Positions 9,360 through 59,773 of a DNA stretch of 64,000 nucleotides are shown here, piece after piece. A model generated the notes under the pieces. It had not been told where the DNA came from and searched no databases. It saw only the letters and a list, made by a program, of their open reading frames with translations. The stretch is from Methanohalophilus levihalophilus (lineage in GTDB: Archaea > Halobacteriota > Methanosarcinia > Methanosarcinales > Methanosarcinaceae). Where the stretch lies: contig NZ_JAGGLK010000003.1 in assembly GCF_017874375.1 (NCBI RefSeq), positions 1-64,000 of the forward strand, read 5' to 3'. Position numbers and translations under genes: made by a program. Within the stretch, counting starts at the first letter, position 1; every line of letters begins with the position of its first letter.

Positions 9360-10682
9360 ATGGATATTGAAGGATACGCAAAACGGGCCCTTTCAAAGGG
9401 CGAGGAAAATATTGAAAAAAGGCTTGCAGATCGAATTCAGGAAATAAAAGGGTCCACTCCTGAATATTCTCTCGCACTTGCAAAGGCAGCAGTTGAGGAA
9501 GCAAAAGCAACTCTGAATGTAGAAGGGGATGTCCTAACTTCATCCGTTTCCGGTGTCAGCATGGGACGTTTTGGTGTAGGTTCACGAGGAACAGGTGACT
9601 TTTACACCCATGAGAAAATAGCAGAGGTTATAGGCAGCACAAATGCTGTTGTGGACAGCAGCCAGTTGGACGATTCCGGAGCCGTCCAAATTGATGATGA
9701 CAAGTATCTTGTGATTACCATTGATGGGATGCATTCACGCCTGAGCGATTTCCCTTATCTTTCAGGTTTCCATGTTGCAAGAGCTTCTTTGAGGGATGTC
9801 TATGTAATGGGTACCAGACCACTCGCCCTTTTATCTGACATCCATGTTGCAGATGATGGTGATGTGGGTATGATTTTTGACCACATTGCAGGAATAACCA
9901 CTGTTTCCGAACTTACCGGTATTCCTTTGATTACCGGTAGTACTCTCAGAATAGGCGGGGATATGGTTATCGGTGGTCGTATGACCGGTGGTGTGGGGGC
10001 TGTTGGAATTTCATCATCGCTTGCAGCAAGGCAAAACACTGCAGTTGGGGACGTTATTCTAATGACAGAAGGTGCCGGTGGAGGTACGATTTCGACAACG
10101 GCACTTTACTATGGTATGCATGATGTGATTGATGAAACCATAAATATCAAATTCCTTGAAGCATGTGAAGCCCTTCTTGAGTCAGGGTTGGAGAAGAAGG
10201 TACATGCTATGACTGATGTAACTAACGGAGGGGTTCGTGGGGATGCCAAAGAGATCTCCAGAACTGCTGGTGTCAAACTCATATTTGAAGAGGACAAACT
10301 CCGGCCGCTTGTAAATACTCGTGTTCTGGAAATGCTGGAAAAACTCGAAATAGATTACTTGGGTGTTTCACTTGATGCATTGTTGATTATTGCTCCAGCT
10401 GATATCGCTCCTGCAATCATGGAATGTATTCGTAATGCGGGTGTAGCCATCGATATAGTTGGTCGTGTGGAAGAAGGTACAGGTGCCGATTTGATAGTTG
10501 ATGGCGTGACCCGGGACTTTTCACCAAGATTCAGGGAATCTGCTTACACTCCAATCAAGAAGATGATGGGTGAGGAGCAGCCTGATGATTTCGAGACCAT
10601 GAGAAAAGCAATCGATAAGGCTGCAAATGAGGCAATTGAAAAGAAAAGAAAAGTTGTGGAAAGGCTTAGACACCTTTCCTGA
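9360..10682 (+). CDS. AIR synthase-related (PurM-fold) protein
   Basis: This 440-aa protein has the PurM/SelD/ThiL/HypE fold. An ATP-binding half contains the acidic phosphate-Mg segment SQLDDSGAVQIDDDKYLV and the helix SLRDVYVMGTRPLALLSDIHV. A glycine-rich second half has MTDVTNGG, and an extra ~70-residue helical N-terminus precedes them. Such proteins form ATP-dependent acyl-phosphate or aminoimidazole-type intermediates. The substrate of this archaeal branch is not known to me. It is not PurM itself, because the N-terminus is too long. The start at ATG 9360 follows AAAGGGAT, just after the hisH stop. Confidence 0.85.
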   Translation: MDIEGYAKRALSKGEENIEKRLADRIQEIKGSTPEYSLALAKAAVEEAKATLNVEGDVLTSSVSGVSMGRFGVGSRGTGDFYTHEKIAEVIGSTNAVVDSSQLDDSGAVQIDDDKYLVITIDGMHSRLSDFPYLSGFHVARASLRDVYVMGTRPLALLSDIHVADDGDVGMIFDHIAGITTVSELTGIPLITGSTLRIGGDMVIGGRMTGGVGAVGISSSLAARQNTAVGDVILMTEGAGGGTISTTALYYGMHDVIDETINIKFLEACEALLESGLEKKVHAMTDVTNGGVRGDAKEISRTAGVKLIFEEDKLRPLVNTRVLEMLEKLEIDYLGVSLDALLIIAPADIAPAIMECIRNAGVAIDIVGRVEEGTGADLIVDGVTRDFSPRFRESAYTPIKKMMGEEQPDDFETMRKAIDKAANEAIEKKRKVVERLRHLS

Positions 10683-10686
10683 TATT

Positions 10687-11988
10687 TCATTTTGGGTTTT
10701 CTTTTAGTTTGACGGTCAAAACGGGTCCGTCTTTTCCGATTATTTCCACTTTTTCTCCGGGATGGATAGTTTCTTCTGATTCGGCTTTCCAGTATTCTCC
10801 GTGGTAGCGCACATAACCCCTGTTTTCAGGTGAGATCTCGTCAAGTGCTTCTGCACGTTCGCCCACCATATCTTCTCCTACTATGGGTTTTCTCTTTCTC
10901 ACCTGTATGACCTTATACAGGGCAAAAGCAAAGAATATCGCTACAATTGCTGTGGGAACCAGTACATAATATATCATTGTCATTTGTGCCTCCGCTGGAC
11001 CATACCAGCGCGGGAAATCATTCGGAACAAGGAAGACGCTGCCGGCAACCAAGCATATTATTCCGGCTATACCGAATATGCCAAAGCCTGACGCCTGCAA
11101 TTCCAATATCAACAACACAATTCCAATTCCAATGAGGAATATGGCTGCAAGGTTCACATCAAAACCGATCCCGATTAAACCAAGAACGAGGCTTATGCCG
11201 CCGAACACTTCCGCTCCGACTCCAGGGCTTGAAATGCCGAAGATAATCCCGTATATTCCAATCATAAGAAGCAGGGATGAAACTATCGGGTTTGAGATAA
11301 TTTCCATAAATGCAAGTGAAACTCCCGGTTCATAAGGAATTATATCCGCTCCGGAAGTGTTGAGTTGCCTGCCCTTTACGTTTTCACCGTCCACCTGTAC
11401 AAGCAAATCATCGATGTCTTCAGCAATGTACTCGATTACCCCGGCTTCCAGTGCTTCTTCGGCATTCAGGTTGAGGTTTTTGGTGATGAACTCTTCTGCT
11501 GCCGTCACATTTCTGTCGTGCTGGCTCGCTTTTTCCTGTGCAAGGGCTACAATTGCGTTTATGATTTTAGAATCATTGATAGGCTGTGAGCCGGTTGGTG
11601 ATACACTTACCGGTTGGGCTGAACCAATTACGGTAAAGGGTGCCATTGCTGCCACATCGGTGCTGATGAGAATGAGAGTTCCTGCAGACCAGGCCTTTGT
11701 ACCTTCCGGATATACATATCCGATGACGGGAACCGGCGAGTCGTCTATGTTCTCGATGATTTTCAGGGTTTCATCGAGTCCGCCGCCGGGCGTATTTAAG
11801 GTAATTACAAGGGCTTCGTAACCTTCTTCCTCGCAGATTGCAAGTGCATCCGCTACCATATCATCGGCAACAGGTGTAATTGAATCATCCATCTCAAGAA
11901 CCATAACTTCTTCTGCTGAAGCCATCGGGATCAGCAGTAGAAGGATGAGTATGCAAGAAAAGAAAGAAAGGTATTGGAGCCCTTTCAT
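10687..11988 (-). CDS. NfeD/ClpP-class membrane serine protease
   Basis: This 433-aa membrane protease has a signal-type N-terminus (about 1-25). A ClpP-like catalytic domain faces outside, with GGGLDETL, the nucleophile Ser in KAWSAGTLILIS and a Lys in the QEKASQHDRN region forming a Ser-Lys dyad. Four to five membrane helices follow (about 230-375), and then an OB-fold NfeD domain (GERAEALDEI to the end). It sits 16 nt behind a stomatin gene, the classic STOPP-stomatin operon, in which the protease cleaves the stomatin C-terminus (shown for the Pyrococcus pair). GGAGGATC precedes ATG 11988. Confidence 0.93.
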   Translation of the reverse strand: MKGLQYLSFFSCILILLLLIPMASAEEVMVLEMDDSITPVADDMVADALAICEEEGYEALVITLNTPGGGLDETLKIIENIDDSPVPVIGYVYPEGTKAWSAGTLILISTDVAAMAPFTVIGSAQPVSVSPTGSQPINDSKIINAIVALAQEKASQHDRNVTAAEEFITKNLNLNAEEALEAGVIEYIAEDIDDLLVQVDGENVKGRQLNTSGADIIPYEPGVSLAFMEIISNPIVSSLLLMIGIYGIIFGISSPGVGAEVFGGISLVLGLIGIGFDVNLAAIFLIGIGIVLLILELQASGFGIFGIAGIICLVAGSVFLVPNDFPRWYGPAEAQMTMIYYVLVPTAIVAIFFAFALYKVIQVRKRKPIVGEDMVGERAEALDEISPENRGYVRYHGEYWKAESEETIHPGEKVEIIGKDGPVLTVKLKENPK

Positions 11989-15023: not shown

Positions 15024-15638
15024 TCAATCAACCCTTACGATATGAACAAGAGCGTTTACAGGAACGCCTTCTATGTGGTCAGCATTCTTCTTGTCGAGAA
15101 TGACGGCAATTGAGACAGGTTTTGCACCGCTGTCTTTTAACTGTTTGCATACATCGGTTGTTGTGGAACCGGATGAAATTACATCATCAACAACCACACA
15201 GTTCTTTCCGGCAACGTTTCCGAAATTCCTGCTGAAAATGCCTCTCTGGTTTTCCTTTTCTTTCCGGTTATCATAACCGTGGAATATCGCAAAATCAGCG
15301 CCGAGTTCCTCTGCCATGATTGTTGCCATGGGCACTCCGCTGAGTCCGATTCCCACAACCATATCTACGGTTTCACCGCTTTCACTAAGGCTCTCAAGAA
15401 CCATGTCGCAAAGTGCCTGGGAAATGTATCGGAGACGGTATGAGCTTTTACCGATGTTACTCCAGTTTACGGAAATATCCTTTGGTGCAGCAGGTGATGC
15501 AGCGCCTCTTTTTGCTCTCGCAAGAAGCCATGTAACAGTGTCCCTTGAAACATTCAACTCATTGGCAATTTCCCCGGTAACCAGACCGTTTGCCTGCAGT
15601 TCAACTGCTTTCTGTATTAATTCATCAATATTCTTCAT
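15024..15638 (-). CDS. Orotate phosphoribosyltransferase-like HTH regulator (GfcR-type)
   Basis: This 204-aa protein joins an N-terminal HTH (about 10-45, [21 protein letters not shown]) to a type I phosphoribosyltransferase domain with the PRPP loop [15 protein letters not shown]. This arrangement is that of archaeal PyrE-like proteins, one of which (GfcR of haloarchaea) controls sugar catabolism. It is more likely a regulator responding to PRPP or a nucleotide than the true PyrE. ATG 15638 follows GTGGTGCC and is preferred over the longer form. It converges on the DHH gene with a 6-nt gap. Confidence 0.88.
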
Positions 15639-24860: not shown

Positions 24861-25472
24861 ATGATAATTTCTTCTTCCAAACCATTCGAGGAAATTCTTT
24901 CCATGCTGGATGATGCCGGCAAAATCTTTGTTATAGGATGCGGAGTCTGTGCCACAAAACTCCATGTCGGCGGGGAGCCTGAAGTAGAGGATATGTGCCG
25001 CAAACTCAGGGAGGCAGGCAAGGATGTTATTGGTGGAACTGTCACAAAAGCGGCATGCAGCGTAAAGTCACTGGATTATCTTCTGGACCTTGATCCAAAG
25101 ATTAAAGATGCTGATTCCCTTCTCATAATGTCCTGCGGAAGCGGGCTTTCCATAATTGCCTCAGTTACGGATGCGGAAGTTCATCCTGCTACAAACACGG
25201 ATTCTCTTGGCGGGATCTCCTGTGGGGATGTAAAGGAAGAACAGTGTGTGATGTGCGGAGACTGTATTGCGGACTTTTTCGGGGGAATCTGCCCCACAGC
25301 CCGGTGTCCCAAGGGTTTGCTGAATGGCCCCTGCGGCGGTTCAATGGATGGCAAATGCGAGGTTGATCCCGAAAAAGATTGTGTGTGGGAATTAATTTAC
25401 ATCAAGCTTAGGGATACTAATCGGTTGGATTTGCTGGATAGGATGTTTGAGCCGAAGGAATATGATGCTTGA
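24861..25472 (+). CDS. metV: MetV-like zinc/Fe-S protein, methylene-THF reductase partner
   Basis: This 203-aa protein belongs to the methylene-tetrahydrofolate reductase C-terminal-like family. The N-terminal domain has CGVCATKLHVGGEPEV. The C-terminal Cys-rich part has CVMCGDC, CPTARCPKGLLNGPCGG and CEVDPEKDC. In acetogens MetV pairs with MetF. Here metF is the next conserved gene, but a 3.4-kb KAP gene lies between. It begins 6 nt after the DHPS-like gene, so it belongs to that operon. Confidence 0.88.
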   Translation: MIISSSKPFEEILSMLDDAGKIFVIGCGVCATKLHVGGEPEVEDMCRKLREAGKDVIGGTVTKAACSVKSLDYLLDLDPKIKDADSLLIMSCGSGLSIIASVTDAEVHPATNTDSLGGISCGDVKEEQCVMCGDCIADFFGGICPTARCPKGLLNGPCGGSMDGKCEVDPEKDCVWELIYIKLRDTNRLDLLDRMFEPKEYDA

Positions 25473-25700
25473 GGCTCCCTTATATTCTTACTTTCAAATT
25501 CAATTATTAAGATAATCCCATCTACTTTTTGATATTTTCTTAATTTGAATAGTCAGGAACTTCCAACTTCAATTTAACAAGCTCCGAATGAATATTTTTG
25601 ATTACAAAGGAAAAGTTTAATTGTGGCATCGTCTTTCATGTATCAAAAATAAAAGTTAGGACAAAACAGCTTTCAAAAGATGAACTTTCTAAAAAGCGAA

Positions 25701-25706
25701 TATAAA
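25701..25706 (+). promoter_or_regulatory. TATA box of the KAP gene (leaderless)
   Basis: TATAAA, within CGAATATAAATG, lies about 24 nt upstream of ATG 25727, with no Shine-Dalgarno. The 254-bp gap before the gene (25473-25726) is AT-rich and otherwise shows no gene or strong structure. Confidence 0.55.
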
Positions 25707-25726
25707 TGTGAGAATATGGCGATAAC

Positions 25727-28700
25727 ATGTACCAATTCAACCTTCTTTCAGATGAAGTTTCAGATGACGATTATTTTGAAGATAAGACTCACGAAAATGT
25801 AGCTGAAACATTGTTTAATCTAATAGACTCTAATGATCGAGGCTTTACAATCGGTTTGGAAGGAGAATGGGGCTCCGGAAAATCAACAGTAATTTCTATT
25901 TTAAAAAAGAAACTTGAGGGAAAAGCTTTCCATTATTTTTATTTTGATGCATGGGCACATGAAGGCGATCATCTTCGGAGGATATTTTTAGAATCTTTGT
26001 TAGATCAGTTGGGCATGAAGAGTAGAAAAATCGATGAGCTAAAAGCAAAGATTTCAAATCGCACTCGTAAAACCTTTACTCACACAAATCAATATGGTAC
26101 AACTCTTGGGAAACTGATGGCATTTTCAGTCATGGCTGTTCCACTGGGTGCTGGCCTTGTTTCAGGAGTTGATAGTTCACAACTATCATTTCAATGGGGT
26201 GGAAACCCACATTGGCCTTTTTGGATTGGGGTAATTCTATCAATAATGCCTTTTTTTGTTGTTGTTGCGAATATTGGCTACTTAGCTGCACGCAAAGAAG
26301 ATGGTATGAAAAGTTTGTTCAATGCAAATAACTGGGTATTTTTAGAACGTAAAGATGACGTAACCGCTACTCAGGAAATATCTTCTGAAGAGGAGCGTTC
26401 TTCAATTGAGTTTGAAAGATATTTTGGCGACATCATGGATGAGCTTTTCAAGGATAACCCTTCTAGCAAGCTAGTTATCGTTGTTGATAATTTAGATCGT
26501 ATTGAAGCAAAAGATTCTTTGAAAATTTGGTCAACTCTGCAAACGTTTCTTCAGAAGAGAAATCCTTCAAATTCTGGTTGTCAATGGTATGAAAATATCT
26601 GGATTATTGTACCTCATGACAAAAATGGACTTTCTAAACTTTGGGAAAATAAGGAACATTTGGACGAAGACAATTACGGGGAATGTGGAAAAAATTCAAA
26701 TGGTTTTAGCAGTAGTGCATGTGCAAAATCGTTCTTTGATAAATGTTTCCAAATACGTCTTGAAGTTCCAAAACCCGTTTTGACTGGCTGGGAAGGCTTT
26801 GCTCGAAAAATGATAGATCAAGCGTTTGTAAATTGGAATGAAGAGGACAAAATAACAGTTTTTAGGATTCTACAATTAACACGTAAGCATGTTGGGGATG
26901 CTCCGACTCCTCGTGAAATTAAGAATTATGTTAATCAAGTTGGTCTGCTGAGGTTGCATGTCTTCAAAGAAATTCCAGTAGAAAGTATAGCCTACTACGT
27001 AATTCACAAATATTTGTATAATACCGATACTGAAAAAATAAAAGAGAACTTGAAAGACGGTCAATTGCCTGAAGAAACTGACAGGCATTTTTTGCCTTCT
27101 GAATGTGACAAACACTTAGCAGGGATTGTTTTTGGTGTTAGTCCAGAAATAGGTCAGCAATTACTTCTTGAACCTGAAATTGAAAAAGATTTGCAAGATG
27201 GAAATGGGGAACAATTAAAAGATTTGATGAGAATGCATGGGGATGGATTCTGGTCTGTATTTGATCTTCATATAAGCAGATTATCAACACATTTTGATTT
27301 GTTCAAATACTCTAAAGCAATTTATGAAGAGTTATGGGAAGATTATGGGTATAAATGCACTCAATTTGTGCAAAAGGCACAAAAATCGTTTTTAGTAGAT
27401 CCGTCGACTCTCCCAATAAATGAAAACATTGACGGTTATTTGCCAATAATCAAAATGTCCTCAGACAAGGATTTCCTTGAATCAGTTTGGAATAATGCTT
27501 TAGCAGATCTAGGAGAAAAAATTAGGACACGCGATGGGTTTGACTACGAAAGCAATGTTAGAGGTGTTGAAAAAATAGCTGAGAGTATGGGAAACACATC
27601 TTTCCAAGGGATGACGCTCCACGATATTGATTCGAAAAATTGGATAAAATGGGCTCAAGCTTCTAATTTGCAACAAATACCAGCTTATAAGTGGGTTCTT
27701 CCTCCACAAGATATAGTAGATTCCATTGCTGAGAACATCCCTCCTTCTCCTTCAATTGTACCTGGTACAAAAGAACTCTTCATTTACTCTATTAATTCGG
27801 GAATAAGGAAATGGGAAATGCTTCCTCAAGCATGTCAAAACCACATATTTTGGAATAATGGTACGGCATCGAACGGGAATCAACCATCTAGGGAAGCACT
27901 TGATATTTTAATTTGGCTGACATTTTATTGTGAATCTTGTAGGGATAAGATAGCAGAGTTGCTCAAAACAGGACAATTCCATAACTTTGTCTATCATCAT
28001 CAAGATCAGACTTTGGATATTGATTCTGCCTTCATAATGGCTTACTATTTCAAAAACAAATTGCATGATATTAAAGTTCCACCACTTGCTAATTCAATAA
28101 ATGGATTTCAATTGATGCGTGATGTTTGGCTAACCAGAAACAAAGAGAATGCAAAAGGGATGTTTGAAAATCTGAAAAAATTCAATCAGCTTGACATTTT
28201 GTGGGAGCTTGCTGAAAATCCAGAAAATAAGCTTGTTGCTGACATTCTTGAATTGGCTGTTGACAATGAAATTGCAGACTTGTTTAGTTGCTCAGAATCG
28301 CTCAATAAATTGCACTTTGTAATGGCGTTAATTGGAGATGATTCAAGCGGTATAAATGCTAAATTATTAGATGAGTTCATGAAGCATTCGGAAATCGGAA
28401 ATGAGATAAAATCCTCCTCAACTTTAGACGTTTCAAATTATTCAGATGAACTTCTTTTGATTTTGAAGAAAACGACTGATAAGGAAATACTTGATACTCT
28501 TGCATCAGCTTTAGTCCGACTAGAAAAAGAAGGATGGGATACATGTTTTGCTGAGGATACCTCTCTTGCAGACCTCGCCTTAATGATGAAGGCTAAGAAA
28601 TCGAGCTTTTCACTCGGAAATGCATTTTTGAATTCAATTTTTGAAATCGCTGAACAATGGGCTATGGATGATATTCATTTAAATGCTCAACAAAAGGAAA

Positions 28701-29161
28701 GATGGCATAAGTTTGTGGATCTACTTGGGGACAGTTTCCAAAAACGCTACAAAGATAAAATCACTAAACTAATTCTTGACGAACACTTTTCTGTAACAGA
28801 TGAATTTTATGAATATAATAAACAATTTGTTGAATACAAAAAACTAGTGACAGACGGTAGATCTGATATTCAAGATCTAGTTGAAGAATCTCTAAAAGAA
28901 GACGGTGATTTTATTAGCTTAGGGTTCTTGGATACAGTTTTAGAAAATGATGTGAATAGAGATTTTCTTCCTGCGTCACATATTCCAGATGTTCTCTCAG
29001 ATCCTTTTCACGAGTTATACTGGGCTCAAAAGGATGTGGAAAAGCAGGATCTTCTTAAACGAATAGCTAAAAAATTCAAAGTTGAAATTGAGGAGCAAAC
29101 ACCAGAGTCCGATGATGATACAGATGACTCAACAGTTGAAGATTCTATTGGTGAAGAATAA
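25727..29161 (+). CDS. KAP-family P-loop NTPase, 1144 aa, with membrane insertion
   Basis: This is a STAND-like KAP NTPase (Kidins220/ARMS-PifA family). Walker A GEWGSGKST is at about 46-54, followed by the family signature FDAWAHEGDHLRRIF (about 73-87). Two membrane helices (about 128-147 and 164-187) sit inside the NTPase as usual for KAP. Walker B is LVIVVDNLDRIE (about 249-260). The C-terminal ~700 residues are helical, with no domain I recognise, and end in an acidic tail. KAP proteins in prokaryotes are often linked with exclusion of phage or plasmids, but no function is shown here. Codon and base use are clearly more AT-rich than its neighbours, and it separates metV from metF, so acquisition by transfer is likely. 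Confidence 0.88.
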   Translation: MYQFNLLSDEVSDDDYFEDKTHENVAETLFNLIDSNDRGFTIGLEGEWGSGKSTVISILKKKLEGKAFHYFYFDAWAHEGDHLRRIFLESLLDQLGMKSRKIDELKAKISNRTRKTFTHTNQYGTTLGKLMAFSVMAVPLGAGLVSGVDSSQLSFQWGGNPHWPFWIGVILSIMPFFVVVANIGYLAARKEDGMKSLFNANNWVFLERKDDVTATQEISSEEERSSIEFERYFGDIMDELFKDNPSSKLVIVVDNLDRIEAKDSLKIWSTLQTFLQKRNPSNSGCQWYENIWIIVPHDKNGLSKLWENKEHLDEDNYGECGKNSNGFSSSACAKSFFDKCFQIRLEVPKPVLTGWEGFARKMIDQAFVNWNEEDKITVFRILQLTRKHVGDAPTPREIKNYVNQVGLLRLHVFKEIPVESIAYYVIHKYLYNTDTEKIKENLKDGQLPEETDRHFLPSECDKHLAGIVFGVSPEIGQQLLLEPEIEKDLQDGNGEQLKDLMRMHGDGFWSVFDLHISRLSTHFDLFKYSKAIYEELWEDYGYKCTQFVQKAQKSFLVDPSTLPINENIDGYLPIIKMSSDKDFLESVWNNALADLGEKIRTRDGFDYESNVRGVEKIAESMGNTSFQGMTLHDIDSKNWIKWAQASNLQQIPAYKWVLPPQDIVDSIAENIPPSPSIVPGTKELFIYSINSGIRKWEMLPQACQNHIFWNNGTASNGNQPSREALDILIWLTFYCESCRDKIAELLKTGQFHNFVYHHQDQTLDIDSAFIMAYYFKNKLHDIKVPPLANSINGFQLMRDVWLTRNKENAKGMFENLKKFNQLDILWELAENPENKLVADILELAVDNEIADLFSCSESLNKLHFVMALIGDDSSGINAKLLDEFMKHSEIGNEIKSSSTLDVSNYSDELLLILKKTTDKEILDTLASALVRLEKEGWDTCFAEDTSLADLALMMKAKKSSFSLGNAFLNSIFEIAEQWAMDDIHLNAQQKERWHKFVDLLGDSFQKRYKDKITKLILDEHFSVTDEFYEYNKQFVEYKKLVTDGRSDIQDLVEESLKEDGDFISLGFLDTVLENDVNRDFLPASHIPDVLSDPFHELYWAQKDVEKQDLLKRIAKKFKVEIEEQTPESDDDTDDSTVEDSIGEE

Positions 29162-29198
29162 ATGTGCACAATTTGTAGTTCACAATCTCCGCGATGAG

Positions 29199-29207
29199 TT
29201 TAAAAAC
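29199..29207 (+). promoter_or_regulatory. TATA-like element of metF
   Basis: TTTAAAAAC lies about 27 nt before ATG 29230. It supports a separate leaderless metF transcript starting there and argues against the in-frame ATG 29194, which is upstream of this element. Confidence 0.4.
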
Positions 29208-29229
29208 CAAAGTCACATATAATCCCGGG

Positions 29230-30108
29230 ATGACTTCCACATTCCGTGACAAACTCAACTCAAACCAATTCATCATTACCACAGAAATCTCTCCGCCCAA
29301 GGGCGTTGATCCGGCATCAGCCCTTGAAGATGCAGAATTTGTCAGGGATTACGTGGATGCCTTCAATATCACTGACAACCAGCGTGCTGTCATGCGGATG
29401 TCTCCTCTGGCAATGGGAAAACTCCTGCTGGATGCCGGTCATGAAGTTATCATGCAGCTCACCTGCCGGGATCGCAACCGTCTTGCATTGCAATCCGATC
29501 TTCTCGGTGCTTACGGGCTTGGTGTGCGGAATATCTGTCTTATGACAGGGGACTACCCCACAAAGGGCGATCACCCCGGCTCGAAACCTGTATACGATCT
29601 CGATGCTGTGCAACTCCTGCAAGCCGTAAGCCGTATGGAAAATGGTAAGGATATGGCTGGAAATTCACTGGAATCAACACCTGTCTTTGTGAAAGGGGCG
29701 GTGTGCAATACCGATCCTGAGAACGTAATGCAATTAGTAAAACTTGAGAAAAAGGCACGTGTGGGGCTGGATTTCCTTCAGACTCAGGCTGTCTATGATG
29801 TGGGACGGTTTGAGGATTTCGTTGAGAGCATTTCCCATCTGGAAGTTCCCATACTTGCCGGATTGATTCCTCTTAAATCCGTAAAGATGGCAGAATTTAT
29901 GAACAAAAACGTTCCCGGAATAAAAGTGGATAATGAACTGATTTTCCGTTTGGAATCCTCGGAAGACCCGGCTAAGGAAGGAGCTTTAATATGTGCGGAA
30001 CATATCCGGGAGCTGAAAAAGATTTGCAGGGGAATTCACCTTATGCCAGTTGGTAACAATCGCAGCATCCCGACAATTCTTGAACTAAGCGGCTTATACG
30101 AAAAATAA
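29230..30108 (+). CDS. metF: Methylene-tetrahydrofolate reductase (MetF)
   Basis: This flavin TIM-barrel enzyme reduces methylene- to methyl-tetrahydrofolate. Features seen in its 292 aa are the first strand ITTEISPPKGVD, ITDNQRAVMRMSP, MQLTCRDRNRLALQSD, NICLMTGDYP and FLQTQAVYDV. ATG 29230 gives the normal N-terminus, and a TATA-like box lies 27 nt upstream. ATG 29194 would add 12 residues. It should work with the MetV-like protein, and the product could feed methionine synthesis. Confidence 0.93.
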   Translation: MTSTFRDKLNSNQFIITTEISPPKGVDPASALEDAEFVRDYVDAFNITDNQRAVMRMSPLAMGKLLLDAGHEVIMQLTCRDRNRLALQSDLLGAYGLGVRNICLMTGDYPTKGDHPGSKPVYDLDAVQLLQAVSRMENGKDMAGNSLESTPVFVKGAVCNTDPENVMQLVKLEKKARVGLDFLQTQAVYDVGRFEDFVESISHLEVPILAGLIPLKSVKMAEFMNKNVPGIKVDNELIFRLESSEDPAKEGALICAEHIRELKKICRGIHLMPVGNNRSIPTILELSGLYEK

Positions 30109-58510: not shown

Positions 58511-59773
58511 TCATTTCTCAATGTCCAGAATTTTAAATCCCCCTGCTTTTGGTGGAAAGTATATTAATCCAGCATGACTTAATTGTGCCACGATTGCTTC
58601 AAATTTCCATTCTGGAACCGCTGTAGAAACCAATAATTGATTCATAGGGATTAGGTTTTCCTTGCCAAATGCCTTTTTTAAATCAGTATAAAATATCCTT
58701 TCATCGTCTGATAGTCGATAAAGGAGCTCAGTTTTTAAATTCATTTTTTGTATGAAAAGGGAATGATTATACATTTCACCCCATGTATCAAATGCTGTAT
58801 CAACATCTTCTTTTTCTACCTTTTCTCTAAAATTAAGCCTTGCAACTGCAGATGCTAATTTTGGAACTGCGCTACCCAATTCTTGATTATAACTTGCATA
58901 TTCGCTTTGTCGAAAATCCTCATACATTTCCTGTACCTTGAATTCAATGTGGGATTCTAGCTTTTTAGGAATTTGTGGTTGATACAAAAGGGAATCGAGC
59001 ATATATCCTCTGGCAAGAGGCGCCTGATCAAAAAATTTATCTCGATAGAAGTCAGCAGACTTTAATTCAGTGTCTAGGGTAAATGGTATGTGGACAGATA
59101 TATTGTCTGGATTTTTGTATGTAACATTCACTTCTGAACTAAACAAAGGATTCAATTGTCGTTTTGATTTGGTATAGCTGTAGAAGTTATTTGATTTTGT
59201 TTGGTTGAATTCACGTGGGATAAGTCCCATCATATTTTTGAACATGCTCCATCTTGGTTCATTAGTCAAAGCAGCTGCATCGATACCGCCTTTCATATTA
59301 CTACCCAGAATTGGTGTTGAAGCTGTGTACATTGCAACGCTGTAGCTGATGTTCTCTAGATAATCAGTTGTTGCTACAAACGGTGTTTTAAAAAAGTCTA
59401 AATATTCCTCCAAATCCATCATTTTTCGATGTGTAATTTTGCTAGGGTCGACATATTCCCATCTACTAACATATTTCGTATCATTCCACAAAAAACCATT
59501 TTTTAGAGATGTCACATTTCTTTCAGATTCTTTAACGTAAACCCTTATAAGGCGGTTTTTTTCCGGGGCTTTCCCATTTTCAATCTCATAATAGATTTCC
59601 CTCCCATCTTTCCAAAAGGGAGATGGATCAAGACGAAATTTTCTCTGGCTACGGCCAGTGTATCTGACAAACCCCATGTTCTCATGTTCAAAAAACAGGC
59701 TATATTCATAACCAGACATTTCATAACCATACATTCGTTCGCTAAGAGTTTTATCATATCTAAAAGAGGGCAT
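58511..59773 (-). CDS. Uncharacterised accessory protein with MCM-lid-like C-terminal region
   Basis: I do not recognise this 420-aa protein as a whole. It is mostly soluble, aromatic-rich and without a P-loop. Residues ~305-345 (PKLASAVARLNFREKVEKED and after) resemble the helical lid of MCM AAA+ proteins. The last ~75 residues look like a winged helix (FYTDLKKAF, VPEWKFEAIVAQLSHAGLIY). It is clearly AT-richer than its neighbours and has no partner genes, so it may have been acquired. It could derive from a replication-type protein of a mobile element. The start is ATG 59773. Confidence 0.6.
   Translation of the reverse strand: MPSFRYDKTLSERMYGYEMSGYEYSLFFEHENMGFVRYTGRSQRKFRLDPSPFWKDGREIYYEIENGKAPEKNRLIRVYVKESERNVTSLKNGFLWNDTKYVSRWEYVDPSKITHRKMMDLEEYLDFFKTPFVATTDYLENISYSVAMYTASTPILGSNMKGGIDAAALTNEPRWSMFKNMMGLIPREFNQTKSNNFYSYTKSKRQLNPLFSSEVNVTYKNPDNISVHIPFTLDTELKSADFYRDKFFDQAPLARGYMLDSLLYQPQIPKKLESHIEFKVQEMYEDFRQSEYASYNQELGSAVPKLASAVARLNFREKVEKEDVDTAFDTWGEMYNHSLFIQKMNLKTELLYRLSDDERIFYTDLKKAFGKENLIPMNQLLVSTAVPEWKFEAIVAQLSHAGLIYFPPKAGGFKILDIEK

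What the first reader, a model, noticed from the sequence alone, without database searches (positions are those of the whole stretch)
25473..29229. KAP NTPase inserted between metV and metF of the folate cluster
metV and metF products normally work together and the flanking genes form a tight co-directional block. A 1144-aa KAP protein with much more AT-rich composition, its own leaderless TATA promoter and a long AT-rich upstream gap sits between them, and metF seems to have gained or kept its own TATA box. KAP proteins are known from phage/plasmid exclusion (PifA), so this may be a defence gene picked up in a housekeeping locus. Its ~700-residue helical C-terminus is unassigned.
Basis: partly seen in the sequence, partly recalled or inferred. 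Interest (0 to 1): 0.6.

Follow-up and report, generated by a model that had tools for sequence, protein, structure and literature searches.

The report
Membrane KAP ATPase inserted beside metF
A methanogen carries, between two vitamin-pathway genes, a recently acquired gene for a membrane-anchored ATP-driven protein of a widespread bacterial family that tends to travel with anti-virus genes, so it is most likely a transferred, untested defence gene that landed where the neighbouring gene has its own promoter.

Summary
An intact 1144-aa KAP NTPase gene (25727-29161) lies between metV and metF in a Methanosarcinaceae genome. It is an insertion: none of seven same-genus genomes carries it, and six of them have metV and metF about 30 bp apart. 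Only 3 of 112 family genomes have the gene, at three unrelated sites.

The metF TATA box was kept, not gained. It is conserved in the genera with interrupted junctions. The metV|metF gap is interrupted in 13 of 33 family genomes (7 of 13 genera) by different cargo, so this is a permissive junction.

The C-terminus is now assigned as a predicted ~650-residue alpha-solenoid. The N-terminal NTPase has two inserted membrane helices and resembles the defence ATPases RdrA, BrxC and Avs3/4.

The protein belongs to a sparse family of ~1100-aa KAP proteins in many bacterial phyla. The archaeal copies nest in a clade in which 6 of 11 bacterial members sit inside Type I restriction-modification operons. 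A single-gene, membrane-linked anti-virus sensor/effector is the best explanation (0.6). Function is untested. The closest named system is probably Tmn, whose sequence I could not obtain. New member of a known kind.

The parts
24861..25472 (+). metV (DUF5981, methylene-THF reductase C-terminal-like); upstream flank of the insertion
   Evidence: Pfam PF12225 E 2.2e-31; orthologue found in all 20 genomes searched
25473..25726 (+). AT-rich gap brought with or created by the insertion; no repeats and no gene remnants
   Evidence: No repeats of 12 bp or more within 25440-25740; only trivial tblastn matches to proteins neighbouring the relatives
25700..25707 (+). putative TATA box (ATATAAAT) of the KAP gene, 20-27 bp before its ATG
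   Evidence: sequence; inference, not tested
25727..29161 (+). KAP NTPase gene, 1144 aa
   Evidence: Pfam KAP_NTPase; 62% identical intact homologue in G034; start supported by alignment from M1
25727..27136 (+). NTPase module (about residues 1-470): Walker A GEWGSGKST (46-54), FDAWAHEGD (73-81), Walker B VVDNLDR (252-258), K339, R396, N403
   Evidence: key residues invariant in 50 family members; predicted fold close to RdrA, ORC/Cdc6, BrxC
26102..26290 (+). two transmembrane helices (residues 126-147 and 163-188) inserted in the NTPase domain
   Evidence: model helices; hydropathy, two peaks in 45 of 50 family members
27140..29095 (+). C-terminal alpha-solenoid (about residues 472-1123)
   Evidence: model of this part alone, pLDDT 87, pTM 0.77, nearly all helical; best matches are HEAT/ARM-type solenoids at modest Z
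29192..29205 (+). conserved metF promoter element CGATGAGTTTAAAA (TATA about -31 from the metF ATG at 29230)
   Evidence: only match in the window, 0 expected; TATA at the same distance in all metF loci of genera g1, g3, g4, g5, g13 and g14 that were inspected
29230..30108 (+). metF (methylenetetrahydrofolate reductase), re-set start
   Evidence: Pfam PF02219 E 4.5e-33; start from comparison of loci

Best explanation
Shown: a single foreign gene encoding a KAP-family NTPase has been inserted between metV and metF of one Methanosarcinaceae species. The junction receives insertions repeatedly in this family, and metF there carries its own conserved TATA element, which probably makes insertions tolerable. 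Inferred: the protein is a single-gene antiviral (or anti-plasmid) sensor/effector. It is anchored in the membrane by two helices inserted in the NTPase domain. The C-terminal solenoid recognises an infection product or holds the ATPase inactive. Release lets the NTPase domains oligomerise with ATP, as STAND- and RdrA-like ATPases do, and the membrane helices then act on the membrane so that the infected cell stops growing. The archaeal copies descend from a bacterial clade whose members often sit inside Type I restriction-modification operons, in the position that PrrC takes in some of them (from memory). There the KAP may act as a second layer when restriction is beaten; in the archaeon it works without that operon.
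For: Insertion: absent from 7 congeners, metV-metF about 30 bp apart in six of them, 3 of 112 family genomes at three different sites. Junction. Family: 80 loci in many phyla with fixed architecture and invariant Walker A and B, K339, R396, N403. Tree: archaeal pair plus Marinifilaceae L098 (support 99), inside a 13-row clade (100). Restriction context: hsdM/hsdS/hsdR by Pfam and BLAST, 6 of 11 in the clade against 2 of 37 outside, p 8e-4. Other neighbours: Type IIG, DISARM methylase, Gabija, DRT, McrBC, recombinases, integrases. Structure: NTPase closest to RdrA (Z 16.0, 319 residues, 5.0 A), then ORC/Cdc6, BrxC, Avs3. Purifying selection: dN 0.25, dS 1.12. Precedent: Tmn, a KAP NTPase with two transmembrane domains, blocks phages in E. 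coli (PMC11846954).
Against: No functional test. In the archaeon the gene has no defence neighbours and no restriction operon beside it; only one weak, short HsdR-like match was found in the genome. Guilt by association has no matched control beyond the in-family comparison, and the clade members are related, so the p-value overstates independence. ORC/Cdc6 and other AAA+ proteins give structural scores within 2-3 Z of RdrA, so the fold does not single out defence. The sensing and killing steps are inferred.
Confidence: 0.6

Rival explanations
1. A membrane-linked KAP ATPase with a non-defence job, such as handling membrane complexes, secretion or DNA transfer for a mobile element. It was dropped at a permissive site and is kept for that reason.
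For: Plasmid and transposon copies exist: Thermaerobacter plasmid, Yersinia ruckeri plasmid beside Tni-type transposition genes. Two relatives lie in viral contigs. KAP proteins as a class are functionally diverse.
Against: No transposase, integrase or replication gene accompanies it in the archaeon. In its own clade the recurrent partners are restriction genes.
Confidence: 0.2
2. A plasmid- or conjugation-exclusion gene in the manner of F-plasmid PifA, acting on incoming plasmids rather than viruses.
For: PADLOC PifA profile matches residues 12-133 (E 3.4e-12).
Against: The match covers only the N-terminal P-loop part; QatA and PDC-S20 match as well. The solenoid is not covered by any of them.
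Confidence: 0.12
3. A gene that became part of folate metabolism: metV-KAP-metF as a new functional unit.
For: Co-directional position between two enzymes that work together.
Against: Absent from every other metV-metF pair examined. The two other archaeal copies are elsewhere. metF keeps its own promoter element. The same gap receives unrelated genes in other genera.
Confidence: 0.03
4. A decaying passenger with no present function.
For: Orphan gene, AT-rich, one species.
Against: Intact 1144-codon frame, all catalytic motifs kept, dN/dS about 0.22 against the 62% identical G034 copy.
Confidence: 0.05

Closest known systems
Tmn (TmnA), single-gene anti-phage KAP NTPase of E. coli
   Same: KAP family NTPase with two unusual transmembrane domains (PMC11846954)
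   Different: No Tmn sequence could be obtained, so homology over the full length was not tested. A 1091-aa E. coli KAP protein (WP_129547191), whose relation to Tmn is unknown, matches the family profile over positions 15-1086
PifA (F plasmid, T7 exclusion)
   Same: KAP P-loop, N-terminal match E 3.4e-12
   Different: match limited to residues 12-133; no counterpart to the solenoid found
QatA of QatABCD
   Same: N-terminal KAP-type ATPase match, E 5.8e-12
   Different: 51 bits against the NCBIfam cut-off of 600; no qatB, qatC or qatD next to the gene
RdrA of RADAR
   Same: closest solved fold for the NTPase module (Z 16.0, 319 residues, 5.0 A)
   Different: 10% identity; the flanking genes here are metV and metF, not an rdrB deaminase
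PrrC and other genes lodged within Type I restriction-modification operons
   Same: bacterial relatives occupy the same slot, after hsdS and before hsdR
   Different: no homology shown; the archaeal gene has no hsd genes beside it; the PrrC position is from memory

Membership tests
KAP P-loop NTPase family (PF07693) | significant match to the family profile above its cut-off | tested here: met
   85.4 bits against cut-off 20, residues 23-409
KAP P-loop NTPase family (PF07693) | intact Walker A and Walker B | tested here: met
   GEWGSGKST and VVDNLDR; the glycines, lysine, serine and aspartates tested are invariant in 50 members
KAP P-loop NTPase family (PF07693) | transmembrane segments inserted in the NTPase domain | tested here: met
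   predicted helices 126-147 and 163-188 between Walker A and B
Tmn | full-length homology to TmnA | not testable with these tools
   no TmnA sequence reachable in the collections; the source paper PMC7985843 is not held
Tmn | KAP NTPase with two transmembrane domains | tested here: met
   definition from PMC11846954
Tmn | blocks phage propagation | not testable with these tools
   needs an experiment
PifA | match over most of the 720-position PADLOC profile | tested here: not met
   best stretch 15-138 of 720
QatABCD | QatA above the NCBIfam cut-off | tested here: not met
   51 bits against 600
QatABCD | adjacent qatB, qatC, qatD | tested here: not met
   neighbours are metV and metF
RADAR (RdrA) | same fold in the NTPase module | tested here: inconclusive
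   Z 16.0 for RdrA, ORC/Cdc6 at 14.2; a shared fold only
RADAR (RdrA) | adjacent rdrB adenosine deaminase | tested here: not met
   neighbours are metV and metF
Type I restriction-modification accessory gene | located within an hsdM-hsdS-hsdR operon | tested here: not met
   not in this genome; met for 6 bacterial relatives of the same clade

The most novel reading that the evidence does not exclude
The clade is an undescribed class of restriction-linked guard: a membrane-anchored KAP ATPase with a solenoid sensor, encoded between hsdS and hsdR, that fires when a virus disables restriction. Methanosarcinaceae acquired it from bacteria and run it as a single-gene, restriction-independent defence.
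Probability: 0.2. Interest if true: 0.72.

Novelty: new member of a known kind. Interest (0 to 1): 0.42.

Why it matters
KAP NTPases are implicated in immunity (PifA, QatA, Tmn), but what they sense and do is largely open. This work ties one long KAP family to Type I restriction operons in several bacterial phyla and to lone insertions in methanogens, and gives it a domain layout with a candidate sensor (the solenoid) and a candidate effector (the membrane helices). It also suggests a simple rule for where foreign genes settle in an archaeal operon: next to a gene that has its own TATA box.

Tried and rejected
- First scans of genome contigs and viral contigs with the single sequence found nothing; the three-row alignment was needed.
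- No phage record matched.
- Target-site duplication or terminal repeats around the insertion: none seen.
- Gene remnants in the 254-bp gap: none.
- A second KAP copy at the other rearrangement breakpoint in G000 (C2:184000-203000): none.
- A Type I restriction operon in G000: only one weak, short HsdR-like match.
- Metabolic partnership with metV/metF: rejected, because the gene is absent from all other metV-metF pairs examined.
- Site-specific hotspot driven by one integrase: not supported. The cargo at metV|metF differs between genera and no shared integrase was seen among the inserts scanned, so a permissive junction is the simpler account.
- RM linkage counts use BLAST seeds taken from these loci plus Pfam; divergent hsd genes could be missed.

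Full report
WHAT IS THERE. The window holds a conserved block tiaS-(HTH regulator)-purN-glyA-folD-DHPS-metV-[insert]-metF-thiC-cofE. The insert is one gene, 25727-29161 (+), 1144 aa, with a 254-bp gap in front of it. It matches Pfam KAP_NTPase at E 5.5e-24. It is the most AT-rich of the long genes of the window: 35.8% GC against a median of 45.0%, GC3 0.25 against 0.39. Its codon-usage distance is raised but only 9th of 49, so composition alone would not prove foreign origin.

IT IS AN INSERTION. Of seven other genomes of the genus, none carries the gene. Six have metV and metF about 30 bp apart. In the seventh, G002, the closest by metF identity (80%), the junction is a rearrangement breakpoint: downstream of metV comes purH and upstream of metF a methyltransferase gene, which in the window's own genome lie about 4 kb apart on contig 2. 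Among 112 genomes of the family, three carry the gene: this one, G034 (62% identical) and the contig end in G452 (the L122 locus, Methanosarcina sp. UBA8098, judged the same by its coordinates), each in a different neighbourhood. A draw of 393 genomes of the phylum gave no other full-length copy.

WHY THIS SITE. The metF coding frame listed at 29194 begins with twelve codons that overlie a conserved element, CGATGAGTTTAAAAACC. A TATA part stands about 30-33 bp before the ATG at 29230 and before matching ATGs in the genera with interrupted junctions (g1, g3, g4, g5, g8, g13, g14) and in g11. The 14-letter pattern CGATGNNTTTAAAA occurs once in the window, with none expected by chance. It was not seen at that distance in genera g6 and g7, in the g2 genome inspected, or in three outgroup genomes of the order, and in all of these metV and metF are uninterrupted. 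Across the family the metV|metF gap is interrupted in 13 of 33 genomes and 7 of 13 genera, against 0 of 27 genomes for glyA|folD and 1 of 21 for HTHreg|purN. The cargo differs: an AAA_14-DUF4143 ATPase, HTH regulators, unknown proteins. The metF|thiC junction shows a similar number of breaks, but there thiC is usually missing from the locus, so the two are not alike. I read this as a permissive junction: metF is transcribed on its own, so insertions upstream cost little. This is correlation over few genera, and no transcript was mapped. No repeats mark the insertion ends in the window, so the mechanism of insertion is unknown.

THE PROTEIN. Alignment of 50 relatives shows invariant G46, W48, G49, S50, G51, K52, S53 (Walker A), D254, N255, D257, R258 (Walker B), K339, R396 and N403. 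Two hydrophobic peaks lie in the insert between Walker A and B in 45 of 50. The AlphaFold2 model has mean pLDDT 84 but pTM only 0.49, so the relative placement of the domains is uncertain. The NTPase module (1-470) is closest to RdrA of RADAR (Z 16.0, rmsd 5.0 A, 319 residues), then ORC/Cdc6 (14.2), BrxC (13.0) and Avs3 (12.7). The C-terminal part modelled alone (residues 472-1144, pLDDT 87, pTM 0.77) is nearly all helical and matches HEAT/ARM solenoids such as importins and beta-catenin at Z near 8, a level at which only the general arrangement should be read.

THE FAMILY AND ITS COMPANY. A scan of 84,980 species genomes with a three-row alignment found 113 relatives, 80 kept, mostly 1090-1200 aa, in Pseudomonadota, Bacteroidota, Planctomycetota, Acidobacteriota, Chloroflexota, Spirochaetota and others. 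Distribution is sparse: 5 of 395 genomes in one bacterial order and 1 of 393 in another. Plasmid copies exist beside transposases and Tni-type transposition genes. In the tree the two archaeal proteins join a Marinifilaceae protein (support 99) within a 13-row clade (support 100). In that clade six of eleven bacterial members lie directly behind hsdM and hsdS (L098, L103, L104, L106, L108, L116), five of them with hsdR further downstream. In the Kangiella locus the order is hsdM-hsdS-KAP-mcrB-mcrC-hsdR. Outside the clade two of 37 have a Type I gene near (Fisher p 8e-4; the rows are related, so the p-value is optimistic). Other neighbours across the family match Type IIG enzymes, DISARM methylase, Gabija GajB, DRT, McrBC, recombinases and integrases; no matched control set was run for these.

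HOW IT MOST LIKELY WORKS. Shown: intact NTPase motifs, purifying selection (dN 0.25, dS 1.12 between G000 and G034), predicted membrane helices within the NTPase domain, a predicted solenoid, and a mobile, defence-associated family. Inferred: the solenoid senses or is held by a partner; ATP-driven oligomerisation follows; the membrane helices deliver the effect; the infected cell stops. In bacterial members of the clade the slot after hsdS is the one PrrC takes in some Type I operons (from memory), which suggests a second layer that acts when restriction fails. In the archaeon there is no such operon beside the gene, and only one weak, short HsdR-like match in the genome, so it must work alone or with unlinked partners.

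KNOWN OR NEW. It is a KAP NTPase by every test made. It is not PifA or QatA by profile coverage and score. Tmn, described as a KAP family NTPase with two unusual transmembrane domains that inhibits T2, P1, phiVi and phiX (PMC11846954), is the most likely named relative. No Tmn sequence could be reached, so this stays open. Literature searches for KAP proteins with Type I restriction operons returned nothing relevant, within the limits of the held open-access papers.

Noticed in passing
L041 (G034:C75:16000-31218), 10500-10563, 11111-11207, 15123-15219: The 3' end of a DnaQ-like exonuclease gene occurs three times in the same orientation, with a cytidine-deaminase-like gene between two copies and the KAP gene between the next two. 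This looks like repeated insertion at a gene end with duplication of that end.
   Followed up: partly
L054 (G005:C2:1224000-1242000) and L059 (G004:C14:185000-204000): Partial duplicates of metV and DHPS lie several kb from the intact metV in two same-genus genomes, a sign of local duplication in the folate cluster.
   Followed up: partly
L061:6224-8149, L060:8556-10481: A 641-aa hydantoinase/oxoprolinase-like gene sits between DHPS and metV in same-genus genomes but not in the window's genome or G002.
   Followed up: no
L040 and L056 (G002): The metV|metF junction is a breakpoint of a rearrangement relative to the window's genome, joined to the methyltransferase|purH junction of contig 2.
   Followed up: partly
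window 58511-59773: A second AT-rich gene (35.9% GC, GC3 0.26), 420 aa, with only a weak MCM AAA-lid match; possibly also acquired.
   Followed up: no
L215 (G753:C60), L104: Kangiella operon hsdM-hsdS-KAP-mcrB-mcrC-hsdR, with KAP and McrBC both lodged between hsdS and hsdR.
   Followed up: partly
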